Assembly (NCBI GenBank): GCA_021789095.1
Contig: JAJYJX010000069.1
Location: forward strand, 1-12,071
Source: a bacterium
GTDB lineage: Bacteria; JAMCPX01
Direction of reading: 5' to 3'
Length of the DNA: 12,071 nucleotides
Position numbers and translations under genes: made by a program. Under the pieces are notes generated by a model. The model did no database searches. It saw nothing but the letters and a program-made list of their open reading frames with translations, and was not told the DNA's origin. Below are positions 582 to 7,391 of this stretch, one piece after another. The first letter of the stretch is position 1; every line of letters starts with the position of its first letter.

Positions 582-1634
582 ATGAACAAACTCCCTTGTT
601 GCACTTTCCAGGTAAATTATGCCAGAAACAGTGCGAGCAGAATGATCGCCGAATCCGAAAGCGCCAATATAGCACGGTGGAACGGTGAACACGGGCATTA
701 CGAAGTCTATTACATAAAGTTCAATCACAGGCAAAGCTCCACGGGGTATTGGATACGGTATACTCTACTCTCGCCTCTGAACGGTCCTGCGGTTGCAGAG
801 CTGTGGGGTATCTTCTTCGATTCAAAAAACCCTGCAAACAACATTGCTATCAAAAACACGTTTCCTATGTCAGATGCAGAAATAAAAAAGGACACCTTTC
901 TTTTCAGGATTAACGACGCTGTCATATCCCAGACAGGAACGAAGGGCACATTAAATGACGCAACCAACGTCATGCACTGGGATTTAAGGTTTGAGCAGGT
1001 TTCAGGACTGTTTTTTCATTTCCCGCACCGGTTCATGTACAGGACTGCAACACCAAAAACAAAGGTCGTTTCCCCTAACTTCGACATAAGAATACACGGG
1101 AAGATCGCGATCAACAACAGGGTCTATGAATGCAGCGGCGAGCCGGGCCAGCAAACCCACATTTGGGGTACAAAGCACGCAGAGAGATGGACATGGGCAA
1201 ATTCCAGCATATTCAAAGAAGACAGCTCGGCAATCTTCGAGGGTCTTTCAGCACAGGTAAAGATAGGGAACAGGCCGAGCCCTGCATTAACCCTGTTTTT
1301 CCTAAGGTGCCTTGGCAAAGATCACTGCCTGAACGGGCTCGTACAGCTTTTCAGAAACAAGAGCGAAAGCGCATTCCCTGTATGGAGGTTTAGCGCAAAA
1401 CAGGGGCACATGCGGTTCAGCGGTGAGATCAAAGCTGGCCTTGAATCGTTTGTCGGTGTAGAATACACAGACCCAGACCGCGAGAAGCTGTGGTGCTACA
1501 ACACAAAGGTAGCGGACATGAGACTCGAAGTATTTGAGCGTGATAAAAAGATCATAACTCTCACATCCGATAAATCGTGCGCACTTGAGTTTGTAAGCAG
1601 GGTCAAAGATCCCCGTGTACCCATAAGGATATAG
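582..1634 (+). CDS. AttH/CrtC/tocopherol-cyclase-like (lipocalin-type) protein
   Basis: A 350-residue protein. Recognisable blocks are GYWIRYTLLSP (about residues 55-65), AELWGIFFD (72-80), a segment with FHFPHRFMY and SPNFDIRIHGKI (145-175), and GQQTHIWGTKHAERWTWANSS (189-209). The aromatic, beta-rich pattern and the GxQxHxWGxxHAxRWxWA block resemble the two-lobed lipocalin-like fold shared by AttH, carotenoid 1,2-hydratase CrtC and tocopherol cyclase. There are no long hydrophobic segments or signal peptide, so it is probably cytosolic. The ATG at 582 has AAGG about ten bases upstream; the ATG at 642 is an alternative, and homology would begin only after it (RWNGEHGHYEVYY). It follows DUF1015 by 31 bases. 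The enzymatic role, if any, cannot be told from sequence; a lipid or isoprenoid ligand is inferred only from the fold family. Family assignment is moderate. Confidence 0.7.
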   Translation: MNKLPCCTFQVNYARNSASRMIAESESANIARWNGEHGHYEVYYIKFNHRQSSTGYWIRYTLLSPLNGPAVAELWGIFFDSKNPANNIAIKNTFPMSDAEIKKDTFLFRINDAVISQTGTKGTLNDATNVMHWDLRFEQVSGLFFHFPHRFMYRTATPKTKVVSPNFDIRIHGKIAINNRVYECSGEPGQQTHIWGTKHAERWTWANSSIFKEDSSAIFEGLSAQVKIGNRPSPALTLFFLRCLGKDHCLNGLVQLFRNKSESAFPVWRFSAKQGHMRFSGEIKAGLESFVGVEYTDPDREKLWCYNTKVADMRLEVFERDKKIITLTSDKSCALEFVSRVKDPRVPIRI

Positions 1635-1666: not shown

Positions 1667-1811
1667 GGAGTTACTCCTTCTCTTGAGGAGAAGGAAGGGA
1701 TAAAGTCACATTTCCATGCGGCTGCGATAGCAGACGGGGTGTTTTCTTTCACCCTGCATTGTTTTTTTCCCGCAGATCAACTCCTGCGTTATCCCTCTTA
1801 ATTTAAGAGGC
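1667..1811. repeat. Chain of short palindromes between convergent genes
   Basis: Five inverted repeats follow each other in 145 bases: GGAG/CTCC (1667-1677); an 8-bp stem TCCTTCTC/GAGAAGGA with a 5-base loop (1675-1695); CTGC/GCAG (1722-1733); GGGTG/CACCC (1737-1754); and CCTCTTA/TAAGAGG (1795-1811). The pattern resembles degenerate copies of dispersed intergenic palindromes common in deltaproteobacterial genomes (inference from memory, not searched). The region carries no open reading frame of its own. It lies between the plus-strand operon and the minus-strand nuclease gene, at the left border of the AT-rich segment. Confidence 0.5.
1736..1768 (+). terminator. Weak candidate terminator for the DUF1015 operon
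   Basis: The hairpin GGGGTG/CACCCT with an 8-base loop is followed, after GCATTG, by a run of seven T. It lies about 100 bases after the end of the lipocalin-like gene. The short stem and the gap before the T-run make this uncertain; one of the other hairpins nearby may do the job instead. Confidence 0.25.
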
Positions 1812-1874
1812 GGGCACACAAGCGAAGCTTGGGTCGAGGGCGTTAGAATTTTTATACTCTTACCGCCTGCGTAA

Positions 1875-2051
1875 CGTGTAGACGCACCACCATTTCTTTC
1901 CCTAGCTGTTGGAAACGTTATAGAAGAAGGAATACGTCAATGTAATAAGAGCGATGAATTTTTGCTTTTTGATTATTATGTAACCAATGTAAGCAAGCCT
2001 ACCAATGAGGAAATCTTAAAATATCTTAAAGAGATCGAGGATAGAAGATGA
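1875..2051 (+). pseudogene. Coding remnant, 58 codons, origin unknown
   Basis: The frame opens after a TAA at 1872-1874, has no convincing start codon or ribosome binding site, and reads to a TGA at 2049-2051. Its second half looks like genuine protein: it contains LAVGNVIEEGIRQCNKSDEF, then LFDYYVTN, and ends with PTNEEILKYLKEIEDRR, a charged amphipathic helix. It abuts the end of the minus-strand nuclease gene (stop at 2052), tail to tail. I read it as the C-terminal tail of a gene whose front was lost at the repeat-rich border; I do not recognise the family. It could also be chance coding. Confidence 0.35.
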
Positions 2052-2780
2052 TCAAACTATTCGCCTCCAGCGTTTAAACGCTTTCACATCTGCTGAACTT
2101 AAATCGAACCACTCTCCTCTCATTCTTTTTGCTTCAAATCGTTTATGCCAGTAGGCCTCAATACCGCTTGGATCATCTGTTTTGATTGAATGAATTAAAT
2201 CCATTTTTTCTGGTAGTTGAATCCGAAGTTCATTCCCACGTCGCACCGTATCGTTAGTTTTACCAATTTTGTAATAACGGCCAGATTTAAAAAGATATAC
2301 TTCATCGATATTCATATTAGCATCGCCATTATTTTCTCTTTTTTCCAACTTTCTAAGAACAAATTCGCATAGTTTTATAACATCTTCGTTGCCACTTTTA
2401 TTTTTGCAATATTCTATTCCTTTAGTTGAAAACTGTTTTTTAGTCCCAAAGCGATGTTGAAAAGTTCCTTTGTCTGGAAATGTGGAATCATTGCTTTTCT
2501 CAACTGTAATTTCACTGTAGGTTGGGAATTTCCCGAGCTTACGCACAAGACCAATAATTTTTTCGATAAGAAATTCATCGGGGTATGCACCCTGGAGTTG
2601 GTTAGGCTCAAAACCAGCCTCTTTTTAAGCATCACCAAATCGCGGCCAGTATTTAGCCCAATCGTAGGGGTTAATCCCCGTTTCTTTTTCAAATCTGCCT
2701 ACACCCAAAGGCTTGCCGTCATTTTCTTTTGCAGTTCGTAGGATAGCATCAAGAATATCTTGTTTGGTCACATTGCTCAT
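2052..2780 (-). pseudogene. Homing-endonuclease-repeat / GIY-YIG (T5orf172-MUG113) nuclease, broken by one ochre codon
   Basis: Read from the ATG at 2780, the frame is 243 codons with one internal TAA at 2625-2627 (codon 52). Before the stop lies a homing-endonuclease-associated repeat (TKQDILDAILRTAKENDGKP, then KYWPRFGDA). Directly after it, in the same frame, the repeat continues with KEAGFEPNQ. A second repeat follows (LGKFPTYSE, then FPDKGTFQHRFG). The C-terminus is a GIY-YIG nuclease of the T5orf172/MUG113 type: VYLFKSGRYYKIGKT, then GIEAYWHKRF and GEWFDLS. The family normally has leucine at the stop position (WGDALKEAGF), so a TTA to TAA change explains it. A GTG at 2546 would give a 164-residue product with the nuclease domain intact, but it is an internal codon of the second repeat and lacks a ribosome binding site. 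The gene is AT-rich and lies in an accessory segment. A sequencing error or suppression remains possible. Confidence 0.8.
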
Positions 2781-2794
2781 AGTTTTTGCTTTCT

Positions 2795-2823
2795 TTAATA
2801 ACCCATCAACATAAAACAATCAA
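2795..2823 (-). promoter_or_regulatory. Candidate promoter of the nuclease gene
   Basis: On the minus strand TTGATT (2823-2818) and TATTAA (2800-2795) are separated by 17 bases. Transcription would start around 2788, only a few bases before the ATG at 2780, so the transcript would be nearly leaderless. The match is good, but AT-rich sequence produces such matches by chance. Confidence 0.35.
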
Positions 2824-2952
2824 GTACACATACAGATTTTTTTCAAACCAGCGAAGATTACATTTTTTTATCAATCTTACAAAAAGAAAAATCGATTCAC
2901 AGAAAGAGATAGAAAGTAGTTTTTTGAGATGGTTGTAGGTTGCAGAGGCAAA

Positions 2953-2972
2953 GGGCGGTTCGTGAACCGCCC
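2953..2972. repeat. REP-like perfect palindrome
   Basis: A 9-bp stem GGGCGGTTC/GAACCGCCC with a two-base loop, followed by CCTACAC. This GC-rich palindrome stands out in an AT-rich stretch and resembles the widespread intergenic element with GGGCG arms and a CCCCTAC tail. Such copies often give false short ORFs containing GAVHEPP, as happens here on the minus strand. Confidence 0.6.
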
Positions 2973-3006
2973 CTACACATAAATTCTTATTAAAAGCCTC
3001 CTTTGA

Positions 3007-3064
3007 GTTCATTCACTTGCGTTCACATTTGTTCATTTATTCGTTCACGTGAGGGTGAACGAAT
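3007..3064. repeat. GTTCA cluster with 10-bp inverted repeat
   Basis: GTTCA occurs at 3007, 3021, 3031 and 3044, and its complement TGAAC at 3056. The last two form a perfect inverted repeat ATTCGTTCAC/GTGAACGAAT (3039-3048 and 3055-3064) with a 6-base loop. It lies about 70 bases after the end of the Panacea operon. It could be a transcript-end hairpin, a protein-binding cluster or a mobile-element remnant; there is no T-run, so it is not a standard intrinsic terminator. Confidence 0.45.
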
Positions 3065-3098
3065 GAAGAAGAAGCTAATAAATTTTAATGTGTTATAT

Positions 3099-3127
3099 GG
3101 ATTCCCATTTTCATCAGAATGACGGGG
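3099..3127. repeat. Degenerate palindromic repeat remnant
   Basis: GGATTCCC followed by GAATGACGGGG recalls the common dispersed repeat whose arms read GGATTCCCGC and GCGGGAATGACGG, but the central GC-rich stem has decayed. It lies just outside the stop codon of the putative toxin gene. The match is by eye only. Confidence 0.3.
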
Positions 3128-3132
3128 AAAGA

Positions 3133-3573
3133 TTAAATAAGCTTTTTAATGAAGGGCTTTACTATGGGACTGTTCTTTATTGCTTCAACGACCTTTTTTC
3201 TGACTTGCAGTGATATGTCACGGGTTATAAGCTTACAGTTGTAATCCGGATCAACTATCTTGTGGAATTCTTTTTTTAGTATCAATACAGGGGCATTGCA
3301 ATCTATGATGCTTTCCTTTTTTAAGAATAAAAGATCCCCTTTGTTTACCTTAACAAGAGATGATATAGCAGCATCGCTACCTCTATTATGGTAGTACCTG
3401 ACACGATTCTCTATTTGTGATGTAATAATGCATAGGAGCAGGCTGGAGTCATCGTTTATAGGAACTGTTATATAGTAGTGCGGCGGGGAATCCGGCGAAT
3501 ATTCAAGATTCTTAAAAAAGCAAATGCAAAACTCTGTCAGATTCTGAGCAATGATATCCGGAGGAAAATCCAC
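3133..3573 (-). CDS. Putative toxin of a Panacea toxin-antitoxin pair (unassigned family)
   Basis: A 146-residue protein encoded three bases after the antitoxin stop codon (TAA, CTT, GTG). The GTG start has no clear ribosome binding site of its own, which suggests translational coupling. The core alternates hydrophobic strands: HYYITVPI (about residues 32-39), SLLLCIITSQ (43-52), GDLLFLKKES (79-88) and APVLILKKEF. The end is helical and basic, with RKKVVEAIKNSPIVKPFIKK. There are no membrane segments or metal-binding motifs. The small all-beta layout with an opening HYYITV strand recalls the PemK/MazF SH3-like barrel, but this is an impression and catalytic residues cannot be assigned. Panacea antitoxins are known to pair with many different toxins, usually in adjacent genes, so position is the main argument. 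The order here is antitoxin first. The gene is AT-rich like its partner. Confidence 0.65.
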   Translation of the reverse strand: MDFPPDIIAQNLTEFCICFFKNLEYSPDSPPHYYITVPINDDSSLLLCIITSQIENRVRYYHNRGSDAAISSLVKVNKGDLLFLKKESIIDCNAPVLILKKEFHKIVDPDYNCKLITRDISLQVRKKVVEAIKNSPIVKPFIKKLI

Positions 3574-3576
3574 AAG

Positions 3577-4146
3577 TTAATCGAAGTTTCCGGTCAGGAG
3601 CTTTTTCGATTCACTGATGTGGGCTTTGGGCACCAAGAGAGGATCATTTTTTATAGTGGAAAGAAGCTCTTTCGTTTCAATACGCTCCCTTCTTGTAAGC
3701 CCTTCTTTAAAAAGATCCTGGTATTGGTACCACTCAGGATATTTATGTGTATATTCGACCAGCTTCCATTGGCTCATTTTGCCAAACTTATCGATGATAA
3801 AATCAAGAACCCCTTTGTCGCTCTCTGAAAGCATATCAAAAGAAACTTTTGCATTGGGATTTGCCTCGAAATTGTTTTTATCAATCTTTTTAAGCAGTCT
3901 TGAGGCGTATTTATATCCTGAAGATGTGATATTAAAAGAATCGAAGCTCAAAACATCTTTTACGGTTGTTCCTACAGGACCGTTTTCCATGGCGTAATAA
4001 TCATCGTTTGTTATAGTTCTTCCGTAACGGAGAAGATGGAGTTTATCTGCAAGGTAGATAAGCTTTACAAGCTTTATCTTGTCAGCTCTTTTTATCTTTG
4101 TAAGAATATAGTATAGGGCTTCTACTACTGTTGCGGTTTGTATCAT
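3577..4146 (-). CDS. Panacea-domain (DUF4065/SocA-like) antitoxin
   Basis: A 189-residue protein of the Panacea/DUF4065 family, typically the antitoxin of two-gene toxin-antitoxin systems and related to the proteolysis adaptor SocA. The signature is clear at residues 23-58: KIKLVKLIYLADKLHLLRYG, then ITNDDYYAMENGPVG. The second half carries SESDKGVLDFIIDKFGKMSQ and LVEYTHKYPEW, as in the family. The ATG at 4146 is chosen because AGAAGGA lies five bases upstream; a GTG at 4164 in the same frame would start before that site and within the promoter. Two promoter-like sequences precede it. It is followed by the putative toxin after three bases. Its likely role is to bind and neutralise that protein, and possibly to repress the operon, although no DNA-binding domain is evident. 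Family assignment is strong; the antitoxin role is inferred from family and context. Confidence 0.85.
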   Translation of the reverse strand: MIQTATVVEALYYILTKIKRADKIKLVKLIYLADKLHLLRYGRTITNDDYYAMENGPVGTTVKDVLSFDSFNITSSGYKYASRLLKKIDKNNFEANPNAKVSFDMLSESDKGVLDFIIDKFGKMSQWKLVEYTHKYPEWYQYQDLFKEGLTRRERIETKELLSTIKNDPLLVPKAHISESKKLLTGNFD

Positions 4147-4151
4147 TTCTA

Positions 4152-4158
4152 TCCTTCT
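4152..4158 (-). promoter_or_regulatory. Ribosome binding site deciding the antitoxin start
   Basis: AGAAGGA on the minus strand, five bases before the ATG at 4146. It supports that start over the in-frame GTG at 4164. Confidence 0.7.
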
Positions 4159-4166
4159 AACCACCT

Positions 4167-4195
4167 TTTATAACAATCCATTCTGTGAAAGTCAA
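4167..4195 (-). promoter_or_regulatory. Strong candidate promoter of the Panacea operon
   Basis: TTGACT (4195-4190) and TATAAA (4172-4167) are separated by exactly 17 bases on the minus strand. Predicted transcription begins near 4160, giving a very short leader that starts at the ribosome binding site. This is one of the best sigma-70-type matches in the window. Confidence 0.55.
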
Positions 4196-4230
4196 ATAGG
4201 GAAAAGTGAGTTTCTTTCTTCATATAAAAC

Positions 4231-4303: not shown

Positions 4304-5749
4304 TTAATCCAGCCCGTATTCCTTCCAGTTTTTTGTAACAAGTTCTTTTATTTCTGCAGGCATTGAGATCACAGGCGGCCAAACGCGCTTGTGTCCCTCT
4401 TCCTTCAGTTTCTTTGTTGCGTCAATGCCCATCTTCGAGCCGAAGCCAATCTCCGGCGAGGCATGGTTCAGCACATCGACCGGCCCCTGCTGGATAATGA
4501 TATCCCGCTGTGGATCGACATTGTTCCCGAGCCTCCAGATCACGTCCTTTATGTTCTGCACATTTACGTCCTTATCAAAAACTATAACGATCTTTGTAAA
4601 CATGAACTGGCCGAGTCCCCAGATCGCGTTTATCACCTTGCGCGCATGTCCGGGTACGGCCTTGTCTATACTCACGAAAGCCATATTGTGAAACACGCCT
4701 TCTACAGGCAGATTTATATCAACGATTTCAGGCAGGATCTTCCGGACAAGCGGCAGGAAGAGCCTTTCCGATGCCTTGCCGAGGTAGCAGTCCTCCATGG
4801 GCGGTTTGCCTACAATAGTTGCGGGGTAAACAGGATCATTGCGGTGGGTTATGGCTGTTATGTGGAATACCGGATACTGATCTTCCATGGAGTAGTAACC
4901 TGTGTGATCCCCGAACGGTCCTTCTGTGCGCATCTCGCCGGGATCGACATATCCCTCAAGCACAAACTCCGCGTGTGCGGGCACCTCAAGATCGGAATTG
5001 ATACACTTTACAAGCTCGACCGGTTCCTCCCTGAGAAAGCCCGCAAAGATCATCTCGTCAACACCGTCAGGCAGCGGTGCTGTTGCTGCGTAGAGCGTCT
5101 GCGGATCAATGCCTATTGCAACGGCAACATCCATCCTCCTGTTCAGATCCCTGTGCTTCCTGAAATGGGCTGCACCATGCCTGTGCATGTGCCAGTGCAT
5201 GCCTGTTGTCTTCGCGTCGTAGACATGCATCCTGTACATGCCGACATTGCGCCCGCCCGTAACCGGGTCCTTTGTAAAAACAAGCGGCAGAGTTATAAAC
5301 TTCCCCCCGTCGAGCGGCCATGTTTTGACAATGGGCAGTTCATTAAGATCCGGATTGTCACTGATAATGACCTCATGGCAGGGGCCGTCCTGCCTCGTTT
5401 TAGGAAGCATGTCCGAAAGTTGCTTGAGTTTCGGCAGCATCTTGAGCTTCCCCCACAGTGTTTCAGGTGGTTTCTGTCCAAGCAGCGCATTCATTTTATC
5501 CTGCAGGTCGTTCAGGCTGCCCACTCCGAGGGCAAATGCCGTCCTTGATTCGGTTCCGAACATGTTCATCAGCAGAGGGAATTGGCTGCCCTGTACCTGT
5601 TTGAAAAGCAGTGCAGGTCCGCCAGTCTTAATTACCCTGTCTGCGATTTCCGCGGCCTCGAGCACGGGTGAGATCTCTTTGTTGATGACCTTCAGTTCAC
5701 CCCTTTTTCCAAGTGCTGCGATATAGTCTCTCAGGTCTTTAAAAGGCAT
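4304..5749 (-). CDS. ubiD: UbiD-family prenylated-FMN decarboxylase (menaquinone/ubiquinone or aromatic acid type)
   Basis: A 481-residue protein, close to the usual 480-500 residues. UbiD enzymes decarboxylate aromatic acids such as 3-polyprenyl-4-hydroxybenzoate, using prenylated FMN made by UbiX, in the cytoplasm. It begins with the canonical MPFKDLRDYIAALGKRGELK. Other family blocks are DPVTGGRNVGMYRMHVYD (about 161-178), GMHWHMHRHGAAHF (183-196), LEVPAHAEFVLEGYVDPGE (254-272) and EGPFGDHTGYYS (276-287), the cofactor and active-site region. N168 and H191 sit where the metal/cofactor ligands of the family are expected. The ATG at 5749 fits the family start better than a GTG at 5758. It has no good ribosome binding site; a small upstream ORF overlaps the start and may couple translation. 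No UbiX is in the window. Whether the substrate is a quinone precursor or another aromatic acid cannot be told. Confidence 0.92.
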   Translation of the reverse strand: MPFKDLRDYIAALGKRGELKVINKEISPVLEAAEIADRVIKTGGPALLFKQVQGSQFPLLMNMFGTESRTAFALGVGSLNDLQDKMNALLGQKPPETLWGKLKMLPKLKQLSDMLPKTRQDGPCHEVIISDNPDLNELPIVKTWPLDGGKFITLPLVFTKDPVTGGRNVGMYRMHVYDAKTTGMHWHMHRHGAAHFRKHRDLNRRMDVAVAIGIDPQTLYAATAPLPDGVDEMIFAGFLREEPVELVKCINSDLEVPAHAEFVLEGYVDPGEMRTEGPFGDHTGYYSMEDQYPVFHITAITHRNDPVYPATIVGKPPMEDCYLGKASERLFLPLVRKILPEIVDINLPVEGVFHNMAFVSIDKAVPGHARKVINAIWGLGQFMFTKIVIVFDKDVNVQNIKDVIWRLGNNVDPQRDIIIQQGPVDVLNHASPEIGFGSKMGIDATKKLKEEGHKRVWPPVISMPAEIKELVTKNWKEYGLD

Positions 5750-5840
5750 TTTTAACACTAAAACGTTTAAGAGCGATGCTTGTTCGTTCGTTTAACCCTG
5801 CGATCCGCCTAAGACTCTTAAGTTTTTTTATATTACCCAT
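5739..5840 (-). CDS. Possible 33-residue leader ORF overlapping the ubiD start
   Basis: ATG at 5840 with AGAGGA seven bases upstream, the best ribosome binding site near ubiD. The peptide starts MGNIKKLKSLRRIAGLNERT and is strongly basic (ten Lys or Arg in 33). It ends at a TAA (5741-5739) that lies 11 bases inside ubiD in another frame. UbiD's own ATG lacks a good ribosome binding site, so the arrangement suits translational coupling. It could also be a chance ORF in a leader; no homologue is recalled. Not a signal peptide or a membrane peptide. Confidence 0.35.
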   Translation of the reverse strand: MGNIKKLKSLRRIAGLNERTSIALKRFSVKNAF

Positions 5841-5975: not shown

Positions 5976-7391
5976 TTAGAACATATTCAGACGTATGGCC
6001 TGGGCTGATCTCTTCATGGTTGCCTTCAGCTGTGCCAGATAGTTAATATAGTCCTCGTTGAGCTTAAACCATCTCTTTATAATGCGTTTTGCGAATAGCT
6101 TAATCACAAGGGTGGAATAGGAATGCGCCCTGCTGTTGATCATGCCGCCCACCCGGCCTATGGTCTTATCAAACACCATGTTCAGAGCGTCATTGAAAAC
6201 ACGCGTGTAAGAATAAAATTCTTCGAATGAGTCAAGCATGCCGCTCTGCAACTCCCACGGCGTCATATTTTTGGGCTGGAACACAGCATGCATGCCGTCA
6301 TAGTATTGCCACATGTTGTGCAGGATCCTGCCTTGTGATTCAAGCTTCTCATAGGTTTCGGTGCCGGGCAGGGGTGTTAAAATCATGTACTGGACAGTGT
6401 CTATCTTGTTTTTTACGGAGAACTTTACTGTTTCTTCGAATATGTCCCTGTCATCCTCGTCCCCGCCGAATATGAACATGCCGTGTATGCGAATGCTGTT
6501 TCTATGGAACACCTCTATAGCGCGCTTTATGTCATCCAGTGTCTGGTGCTTGCTCAATCCGTTCAGCGTTTCATCCCTTACCGATTCAAAACCTATGTAC
6601 ACCGTGTTGCATCCCGCTTTTTTCATGTCACTGACCAAGTCGGGATAGCGTGTAATATCCGTCCTGACCTGCGCAGACCAGTCAAACTTGAAATTTGCTT
6701 TTGATATGCGTTCCATGAGCTGGTGCGTCCTGTTTACATTCGCCGTAAGATTATCATCATAGAAGAAAACAAAATTTGTTTTTACGCGCTTCAATTCTTC
6801 CATGACCCTGTCAATGGACAATGTCCTGTACCCCTGGCCGAACATTTTTGTTACGGAACAGAAATTGCAGTCATACGGGCAGCCACGCGATGTCATTACA
6901 GGCGTAATACGCATCTTTTCACTGTTCACAAGAAGACGGAAATCCGGGGTTGGAAGATTATCAAGATTTTGCATTAACCTGCCGTTGATAAAACGCTGGT
7001 CAGAGCCGTTCTTCAGGAGATCGACGATGATTTCGTCTCCCTCGCCTGTTACAACATGATCAACATACTTCGCAGTCTCTTCCTTCAGGAATGATGCATG
7101 TATGCCGCCCATGATCACAGTTGAACGCGGGTTCTTTTGTTTGAACTGCCTTGCCAGTTCATAAGCCCTTTCTGAAGTGGACGTAAGTGAGGTCAGGAGA
7201 AGAAAATCGCCCTCCAGCTCATTCATGGCAAGTTTTCTGCCAAGCAGATTTTCATTAACGATCTTTACATCAAAACCAGCATCCCTTATCATGGTACCAA
7301 GGTAAATAGGCCCCATAAGAGGCAGGTTTACGAATTTCGCAAATACATTTGCCTCTACCGCTTTTGGTTCAACGAACAAGACTTTTTTCAT
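5976..7391 (-). CDS. Radical-SAM protein with B12-binding-type N-terminal domain
   Basis: A 471-residue protein. Residues 1-130 form a Rossmann-like B12-binding-type domain (KKVLFVEPK, PLMGPIYLGTMIRDAGFDV, LLLTSLTSTSERA, VIMGGIHASF). The DxHxxG motif that supplies the axial histidine is replaced by NENLLG, so any cobalamin would bind without a histidine ligand. The radical-SAM core follows, with the iron-sulfur motif CPYDCNFC (C171, C175, C178), then FFYDDNLT and VYIGFESVRDETL. A C-terminal region from about 335 begins with LTPLPGTETYEKLESQGR and MTPWELQSG, resembling the DUF4070-type extension. These proteins do methylations or other radical chemistry, often on lipids, cofactors or natural products; the substrate here is unknown. 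Its ATG overlaps the stop of the upstream membrane-protein gene as ATGA, so the two are coupled. AAGGAG lies 11 bases before the start. Confidence 0.9.
   Translation of the reverse strand: MKKVLFVEPKAVEANVFAKFVNLPLMGPIYLGTMIRDAGFDVKIVNENLLGRKLAMNELEGDFLLLTSLTSTSERAYELARQFKQKNPRSTVIMGGIHASFLKEETAKYVDHVVTGEGDEIIVDLLKNGSDQRFINGRLMQNLDNLPTPDFRLLVNSEKMRITPVMTSRGCPYDCNFCSVTKMFGQGYRTLSIDRVMEELKRVKTNFVFFYDDNLTANVNRTHQLMERISKANFKFDWSAQVRTDITRYPDLVSDMKKAGCNTVYIGFESVRDETLNGLSKHQTLDDIKRAIEVFHRNSIRIHGMFIFGGDEDDRDIFEETVKFSVKNKIDTVQYMILTPLPGTETYEKLESQGRILHNMWQYYDGMHAVFQPKNMTPWELQSGMLDSFEEFYSYTRVFNDALNMVFDKTIGRVGGMINSRAHSYSTLVIKLFAKRIIKRWFKLNEDYINYLAQLKATMKRSAQAIRLNMF

What the first reader, a model, noticed from the sequence alone, without database searches (positions are those of the whole stretch)
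3133..4195. Panacea antitoxin paired with a toxin of unassigned family
Seen: a clear Panacea/DUF4065 domain with a strong promoter and ribosome binding site, followed after three bases by a 146-residue protein with no obvious known domain. Known: Panacea antitoxins neutralise many unrelated toxins encoded next door. Inference: the partner is the toxin and may be a new or diverged type, perhaps with a PemK/MazF-like barrel (strands HYYITVPI, SLLLCIITSQ). Placement in an AT-rich accessory segment beside a nuclease gene fits a mobile defence or stability module.
Basis: partly seen in the sequence, partly recalled or inferred. Interest (0 to 1): 0.65.

Follow-up and report, generated by a model that had tools for sequence, protein, structure and literature searches.

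The report
Panacea antitoxin with diverged MazF-like toxin
Two adjacent bacterial genes look like a poison-antidote pair in which a known all-purpose antidote protein (Panacea) probably holds a diverged MazF-type RNA-cutting toxin in check; it is a new example of a kind of pair already shown in other bacteria.

Summary
On the minus strand lie a clear Panacea protein (PF13274, 88 bits against a cut-off of 25.7) and, three bases further on, a 146-residue protein with no Pfam hit of its own. A TTGACT-17-TATAAA promoter and an AAGGA site precede them. The pair is not a chance neighbourhood. All seven relatives found by searching with the partner alone, and all four hits (the window's own included) of a profile search over 386 genomes, sit directly behind a Panacea gene. 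The two proteins co-diverge (r = 0.96), and the partner is under strong purifying selection.

The "unassigned" toxin can be assigned at the level of fold. Its AlphaFold model matches MazF structures (VIA Z 10.8), and a profile built from the enlarged family matches MazF/PemK proteins (hhalign 95%, E 3.6e-8; RelE-like control 0.2%). The MazF catalytic Thr is kept (T51); the catalytic Arg position is probably His (H32).

Best reading: a PanAT type II toxin-antitoxin operon whose toxin is a diverged MazF-like ribonuclease. Kurata et al. 2022 already verified two PanAT pairs with MazF/PemK-like toxins, so this is a new member of a known kind. Toxicity, RNA cleavage and neutralisation are inferred, and the predicted complex was inconclusive.

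The parts
4167..4195 (-). sigma-70-like promoter TTGACT-17-TATAAA
   Evidence: only such match in the window; 0.03 expected per shuffled 2.4 kb strand
4152..4156 (-). AAGGA ribosome binding site, 5 bases before the ATG
   Evidence: sequence read directly
3577..4146 (-). panA: Panacea-domain antitoxin, 189 aa (ORF open from 4164)
   Evidence: PF13274 1.1e-24; relatives share the MIxT start
3133..3573 (-). panT: 146-aa MazF-like putative toxin, GTG start, 3 bases after panA and in the same frame
   Evidence: relatives with PanA in front; MazF fold; profile match to MazF
3478..3480 (-). codon of H32, aligned with the catalytic Arg25 of MazF
   Evidence: global profile alignment; His in 14 of 15 relatives
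3421..3423 (-). codon of T51, aligned with the catalytic Thr48 of MazF; invariant
3142..3171 (-). codons of the conserved C-terminal motif SPIVKPFIKK (residues 135-144), beyond the MazF-aligned core
   Evidence: identical in the 8 closest members; S135 and K143 invariant in 15
1801..4200 (.). AT-rich accessory segment that carries the pair
   Evidence: 37% GC against 47-54% in the flanks; gene order breaks at the 3' end of ubiD

Best explanation
The two genes form a PanAT-type (type II) toxin-antitoxin operon. Shown: the gene pair, its promoter-like site, its conservation and co-divergence, and the predicted MazF-like fold of the second protein. Inferred: the second protein (PanT) is a ribonuclease that cuts mRNA (or tRNA or rRNA) and stops translation, with T51 and probably H32 in the place of MazF's Thr48 and Arg25. 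PanA, translated first and in excess, binds PanT directly and blocks it. When PanA is lost, degraded or triggered, for instance by a phage product, PanT is freed and growth stops. The pair moves as a unit among AT-rich, defence-rich segments.
For: Seven of seven genome relatives found with the partner alone (36-62% identity, Nitrospirae and Geobacteraceae MAGs) have PanA directly upstream, between largely different flanking genes. A profile search of 386 genomes gave four hits, all directly downstream of a PanA. PanA and PanT distances correlate, r 0.96 over 14 pairs, permutation p 0.0001. For the closest relatives dN is about 0.1 against dS of 1.0-2.8. Fold: Foldseek best hit MazF 4me7, E 4e-4; VIA Z 10.8 over 105 residues at 2.5 A to MazF-mt3, with MazF/PemK-family entries filling all 50 rows; repeated with a second, better model of pLDDT 89.5. 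Profile against MazF: 95%, E 3.6e-8; RelE-like control 0.2%. Two of 15 members hit PemK_toxin directly, best 1e-4. T51 invariant. Neighbours of relatives include a HsdM gene (L003), a type I methyltransferase with an HsdR-type N terminus (L004), DndB/DpdB (L007) and a nucleotidyltransferase (L002). Kurata 2022 verified PanAT pairs whose RNase-like toxins also lacked domain hits (PMC8832971).
Against: No toxicity, RNase or binding data exist. The window protein itself does not reach the PemK family. The MazF catalytic Arg is probably replaced by His. The joined PanA-PanT model has pTM 0.57, so no interface was predicted with confidence. L002 keeps an intact PanT beside a PanA with a large internal gap, which would be dangerous if PanT is a strong toxin and PanA the only antidote, unless that gap is an assembly fault.
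Confidence: 0.78

Rival explanations
1. The pair is a toxin-antitoxin operon, but the MazF-like barrel is not a ribonuclease: it binds another target without cutting, as CcdB (a relative in fold, from general knowledge) binds gyrase, and the His and conserved C-terminal motif mark a different mode of action.
For: The Arg of the MazF active site is probably His; S135 and K143 beyond the MazF core are invariant; the window protein has no PemK hit.
Against: T51 and its TS(Q) surroundings match MazF's catalytic Thr and T51 is invariant; the Arg position is also His in 4 of 24 ordinary MazF/PemK proteins and Lys in one M. tuberculosis MazF (PMC7354611).
Confidence: 0.13
2. PanA acts as a protease adaptor, as SocA does (type VI), delivering the partner to ClpXP rather than blocking it by binding.
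For: SocA carries the same domain (PF13274; PMC8832971).
Against: Score 19.6 against a cut-off of 190 for the SocA equivalog model. Kurata 2022 report that tested PanA proteins form complexes with their toxins (abstract) and favour direct inactivation over the SocA mechanism.
Confidence: 0.04
3. The second gene is not a toxin but an accessory or regulatory protein that happens to travel with Panacea, for example on integrative elements.
For: Weak similarity of 6 of 8 close members to the mycoplasma ICE protein family Mbov_0400, best 4.7e-5, whose function is not stated; no toxicity data.
Against: MazF fold and profile match; all relatives found are tied to the antitoxin domain.
Confidence: 0.05

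Closest known systems
PanAT pairs of Pseudomonas moraviensis and Bifidobacterium ruminantium (Kurata et al. 2022, PMC8832971)
   Same: Panacea antitoxin with a toxin that lacks domain hits but looks MazF/PemK-like by profile methods; there toxicity, rescue and inhibition of protein synthesis were shown.
   Different: Sequences of those toxins were not available here, so whether this family is the same cluster was not tested; other phyla.
MazF/PemK/Kid toxins (PF02452)
   Same: Predicted barrel fold, profile homology, conserved catalytic Thr.
   Different: Partner is Panacea, not MazE/PemI; about 30 residues longer; catalytic Arg probably His; conserved C-terminal SPIVKPFIKK; the window protein does not reach the Pfam cut-off.
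Second Panacea-linked family in this sample (A6: L040, L041, L043, L044, L047, L059)
   Same: Small protein directly behind PanA; profile match to this family, hhalign 97%, E 3.6e-11; an invariant His at the matching strand.
   Different: Distinct subfamily; only 7.6% to ordinary MazF.
SocAB (type VI)
   Same: Panacea-domain antitoxin.
   Different: SocA equivalog model far from met; adaptor mechanism not expected.
Mbov_0400 family ICE element protein (NF045891)
   Same: Weak similarity over residues 82-136.
   Different: 16.2 bits against a cut-off of 55; its genome neighbourhood could not be examined (one search found none).

Membership tests
SocA_Panacea domain (PF13274) | profile score over the curated cut-off across the whole domain | tested here: met
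   88 bits against 25.7, profile positions 1-113 of 113
[quoted passage not shown]
   pair conserved in the window, seven genome loci and further loci, with largely different flanking genes
PanAT toxin-antitoxin pair (Kurata 2022) | partner toxic, PanA rescues | not testable with these tools
   needs expression in a laboratory strain
PanAT toxin-antitoxin pair (Kurata 2022) | direct complex of PanA and PanT | tested here: inconclusive
   read-through model of both proteins: pLDDT 89.5, pTM 0.57
MazF/PemK fold superfamily | PemK-like barrel fold | tested here: met
   VIA Z 10.8 over 105 residues at 2.5 A and Z 10.0 with the second model; predicted, not solved
MazF/PemK fold superfamily | sequence-profile homology | tested here: met
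   hhalign 95%, E 3.6e-8 with A3; control 0.2%
PemK_toxin Pfam family (PF02452) in the narrow sense | score over the curated cut-off | tested here: not met
   no hit for the window protein; 2 of 15 relatives hit, best 1e-4. Therefore not filed as a PF02452 member
MazF ribonuclease active site | Thr48 equivalent | tested here: met
   T51, 15 of 15
MazF ribonuclease active site | Arg25 equivalent | tested here: not met
   probably H32, 14 of 15; the alignment is less sure at this end; Arg is not universal in MazF (His in 4 of 24 ordinary members; Lys in one)
SocA (NF047745, type VI) | equivalog score over cut-off | tested here: not met
   19.6 against 190
Mbov_0400 (NF045891) | score over cut-off | tested here: not met
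   16.2 against 55

The most novel reading that the evidence does not exclude
This Panacea-bound branch of the MazF fold uses a different active site or target (His in place of Arg, plus an invariant C-terminal Ser/Lys motif absent from the MazF core), and the C-terminal motif is the docking site that ties the branch to Panacea antitoxins.
Probability: 0.15. Interest if true: 0.45.

Novelty: new member of a known kind. Interest (0 to 1): 0.27.

Why it matters
It gives a named fold and a testable active site to one of the many Panacea partners that lack domain hits, and a compact, co-diverging family of pairs in which to study how one antitoxin domain adapts to MazF-like toxins. It would not change the general picture of Panacea.

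Tried and rejected
tblastn of the partner against plasmids and phages: nothing. Profile scan of viral contigs with the partner: nothing; scanning with PanA gave five viral contigs, and the partner family or a distant relative of it sits behind PanA in all five. PDB sequence searches with the partner or its profile: only chance hits. NF045891 in 386 genomes: no hit anywhere, so Mbov_0400 neighbourhoods could not be judged. Spurious low-scoring genome hits of the single sequence were discarded after the profile search. Nucleic-acid mimicry by PanA, as known for the C-terminal domain of DarG, was considered: the window PanA is basic (pI 9.1), so not favoured. Operator-like palindromes near the promoter: none. 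Repeats bounding the segment: no convincing pair. The interface from the read-through model is not interpretable at pTM 0.57. No structure library was searched with PanA alone, so nothing is claimed about its fold.

Full report
Observation. The minus strand carries, in order, a promoter-like site TTGACT-17-TATAAA (4195-4167), an AAGGA ribosome site (4156-4152), a Panacea gene (ATG 4146 to 3577, 189 aa) and, three bases on and in the same frame, a 146-residue ORF starting with GTG (3573-3133). The Panacea domain is certain (PF13274, 88 bits against 25.7, full length). The promoter pattern occurs once in the window, against 0.03 expected per shuffled 2.4 kb strand. The second ORF has no Pfam or PHROGs hit and only a sub-threshold NCBIfam hit (Mbov_0400, 16 bits against 55).

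The second ORF is a real gene and is tied to Panacea. A search of genome contigs with the partner alone returned seven relatives (36-62% identity) from Nitrospirae MAGs and one Geobacteraceae MAG. In all seven the ORF directly upstream is PanA, with an intergenic gap of 2-3 bases to the aligned start, while the genes further out mostly differ. An enlarged profile (A3, 15 members) run over 386 genomes gave four hits, the window's own included, and each lies directly downstream of a PanA, although only 68 of those genomes have any PanA. PanA and PanT distance matrices correlate at r 0.96 over 14 pairs (p 0.0001); some of these pairs were found through PanA, so this shows co-inheritance rather than an independent count. 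Among the closest relatives nonsynonymous change is about 0.1 per site where synonymous change is 1.0-2.8.

What the partner is. An AlphaFold model from eight sequences (pLDDT 79.9) finds MazF as best Foldseek hit (4me7, E 4e-4), and in VIA-align all 50 listed entries are MazF/PemK-family structures, best Z 10.8, 105 residues, 2.5 A. A second model with a deeper alignment (pLDDT 89.5) gives Z 10.0 for the same fold. Profile-profile comparison supports homology and not only shape: A3 against 24 MazF/PemK proteins gives 95%, E 3.6e-8; a RelE-like control family that also sits behind PanA gives 0.2%. Two of the 15 members reach PemK_toxin directly (best 1e-4).

Active site. MazF Arg25 and Thr48 are the key catalytic residues (PMC7354611). 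T51 aligns with Thr48 and is invariant in 15 of 15. H32 aligns with Arg25 in the global profile alignment and is His in 14 of 15; this end of the alignment is less certain. His also occurs there in 4 of 24 ordinary members and Lys in one M. tuberculosis MazF, so the change does not exclude a ribonuclease. The family adds a conserved C-terminal motif SPIVKPFIKK (S135 and K143 invariant) beyond the MazF-aligned core; its role is unknown, docking to PanA being one possibility.

Complex. Because the two window genes are in one frame, reading the stop codon through allowed both proteins to be folded as one chain, with four other in-frame pairs as paired rows. Each protein folds well, but pTM is 0.57: the mutual placement is not confident, and no interface is claimed.

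Setting. The segment 1801-4200 is 37% GC against 47-54% beside it. In related genomes the neighbouring ubiD and radical-SAM genes are kept, but the gene after ubiD is a bioA-like aminotransferase in three of them (G001, G004, G007); here the PanAT pair stands there instead. No repeats mark an element boundary. Relatives lie beside a HsdM gene (L003), a type I methyltransferase with an HsdR-type N terminus (L004), a DndB/DpdB-type protein (L007) and a nucleotidyltransferase of a candidate defence family (L002). Five related pairs, found through PanA, are on contigs classed as viral in IMG/VR. A mobile stability or defence module is therefore plausible but not shown.

Relation to known systems. 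Kurata et al. 2022 (PMC8832971) described 88 clusters of Panacea partners and verified nine new pairs. Two of these (P. moraviensis, B. ruminantium) have toxins without domain hits but with predicted MazF/PemK similarity, and both inhibit protein synthesis. The 2023 follow-up (PMC10440598) lists MazF/PemK among the commonest folds in its network and shows that a stand-alone Panacea domain can neutralise directly. The window pair fits that picture; its PanA is a stand-alone Panacea protein with a short C-terminal tail.

Verdict. A PanAT type II toxin-antitoxin operon with a diverged MazF-like toxin, confidence 0.78; a new member of a known kind. Fold, pairing and conservation are shown computationally; toxicity, RNA cleavage, direct neutralisation and any defence role are inferred.

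Noticed in passing
window 2052-2819 (-): GIY-YIG (MUG113/T5orf172) nuclease gene with one in-frame stop after about 64 codons, so probably decayed, or expressed only as its C-terminal part.
   Followed up: partly
window 4304-5758 and 5976-7391 (-): ubiD-like and radical-SAM genes are kept side by side in related genomes, but gene order breaks at the 3' end of ubiD, where three relatives have a bioA-like gene and the window has panA.
   Followed up: partly
L002:4600-4998: PanA with a large internal gap in the Panacea core beside an intact PanT; either a damaged antitoxin or an assembly fault.
   Followed up: no
L041:931-1326, L043, L040, L044, L047, L059: A second family of small proteins behind PanA, related to this PanT by profile (97%) but hardly to ordinary MazF (7.6%); one is in a genome of the window's own family.
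   Followed up: partly
L037, L049, L053, L063, L066, L067: PanA followed by a RelE/HigB-looking protein in several unrelated genomes.
   Followed up: no
model me8397d6e82d7, residues 4-172 (PanA): Structure match of the PanA part to chain B of the M. tuberculosis DarTG complex 7yk3 (Z 9.6, 139 residues, 4.2 A); which protein chain B is was not checked, and a largely helical domain can reach this Z by chance.
   Followed up: no
window 3133-3573: Weak similarity of the PanT family to the mycoplasma ICE protein family Mbov_0400 (6 of 8 close members, best 4.7e-5); worth checking whether those also sit beside Panacea genes.
   Followed up: partly
window 582-1634 (+): Gene with sub-threshold similarity to tocopherol cyclase (1.1e-4, below cut-off).
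   Followed up: no
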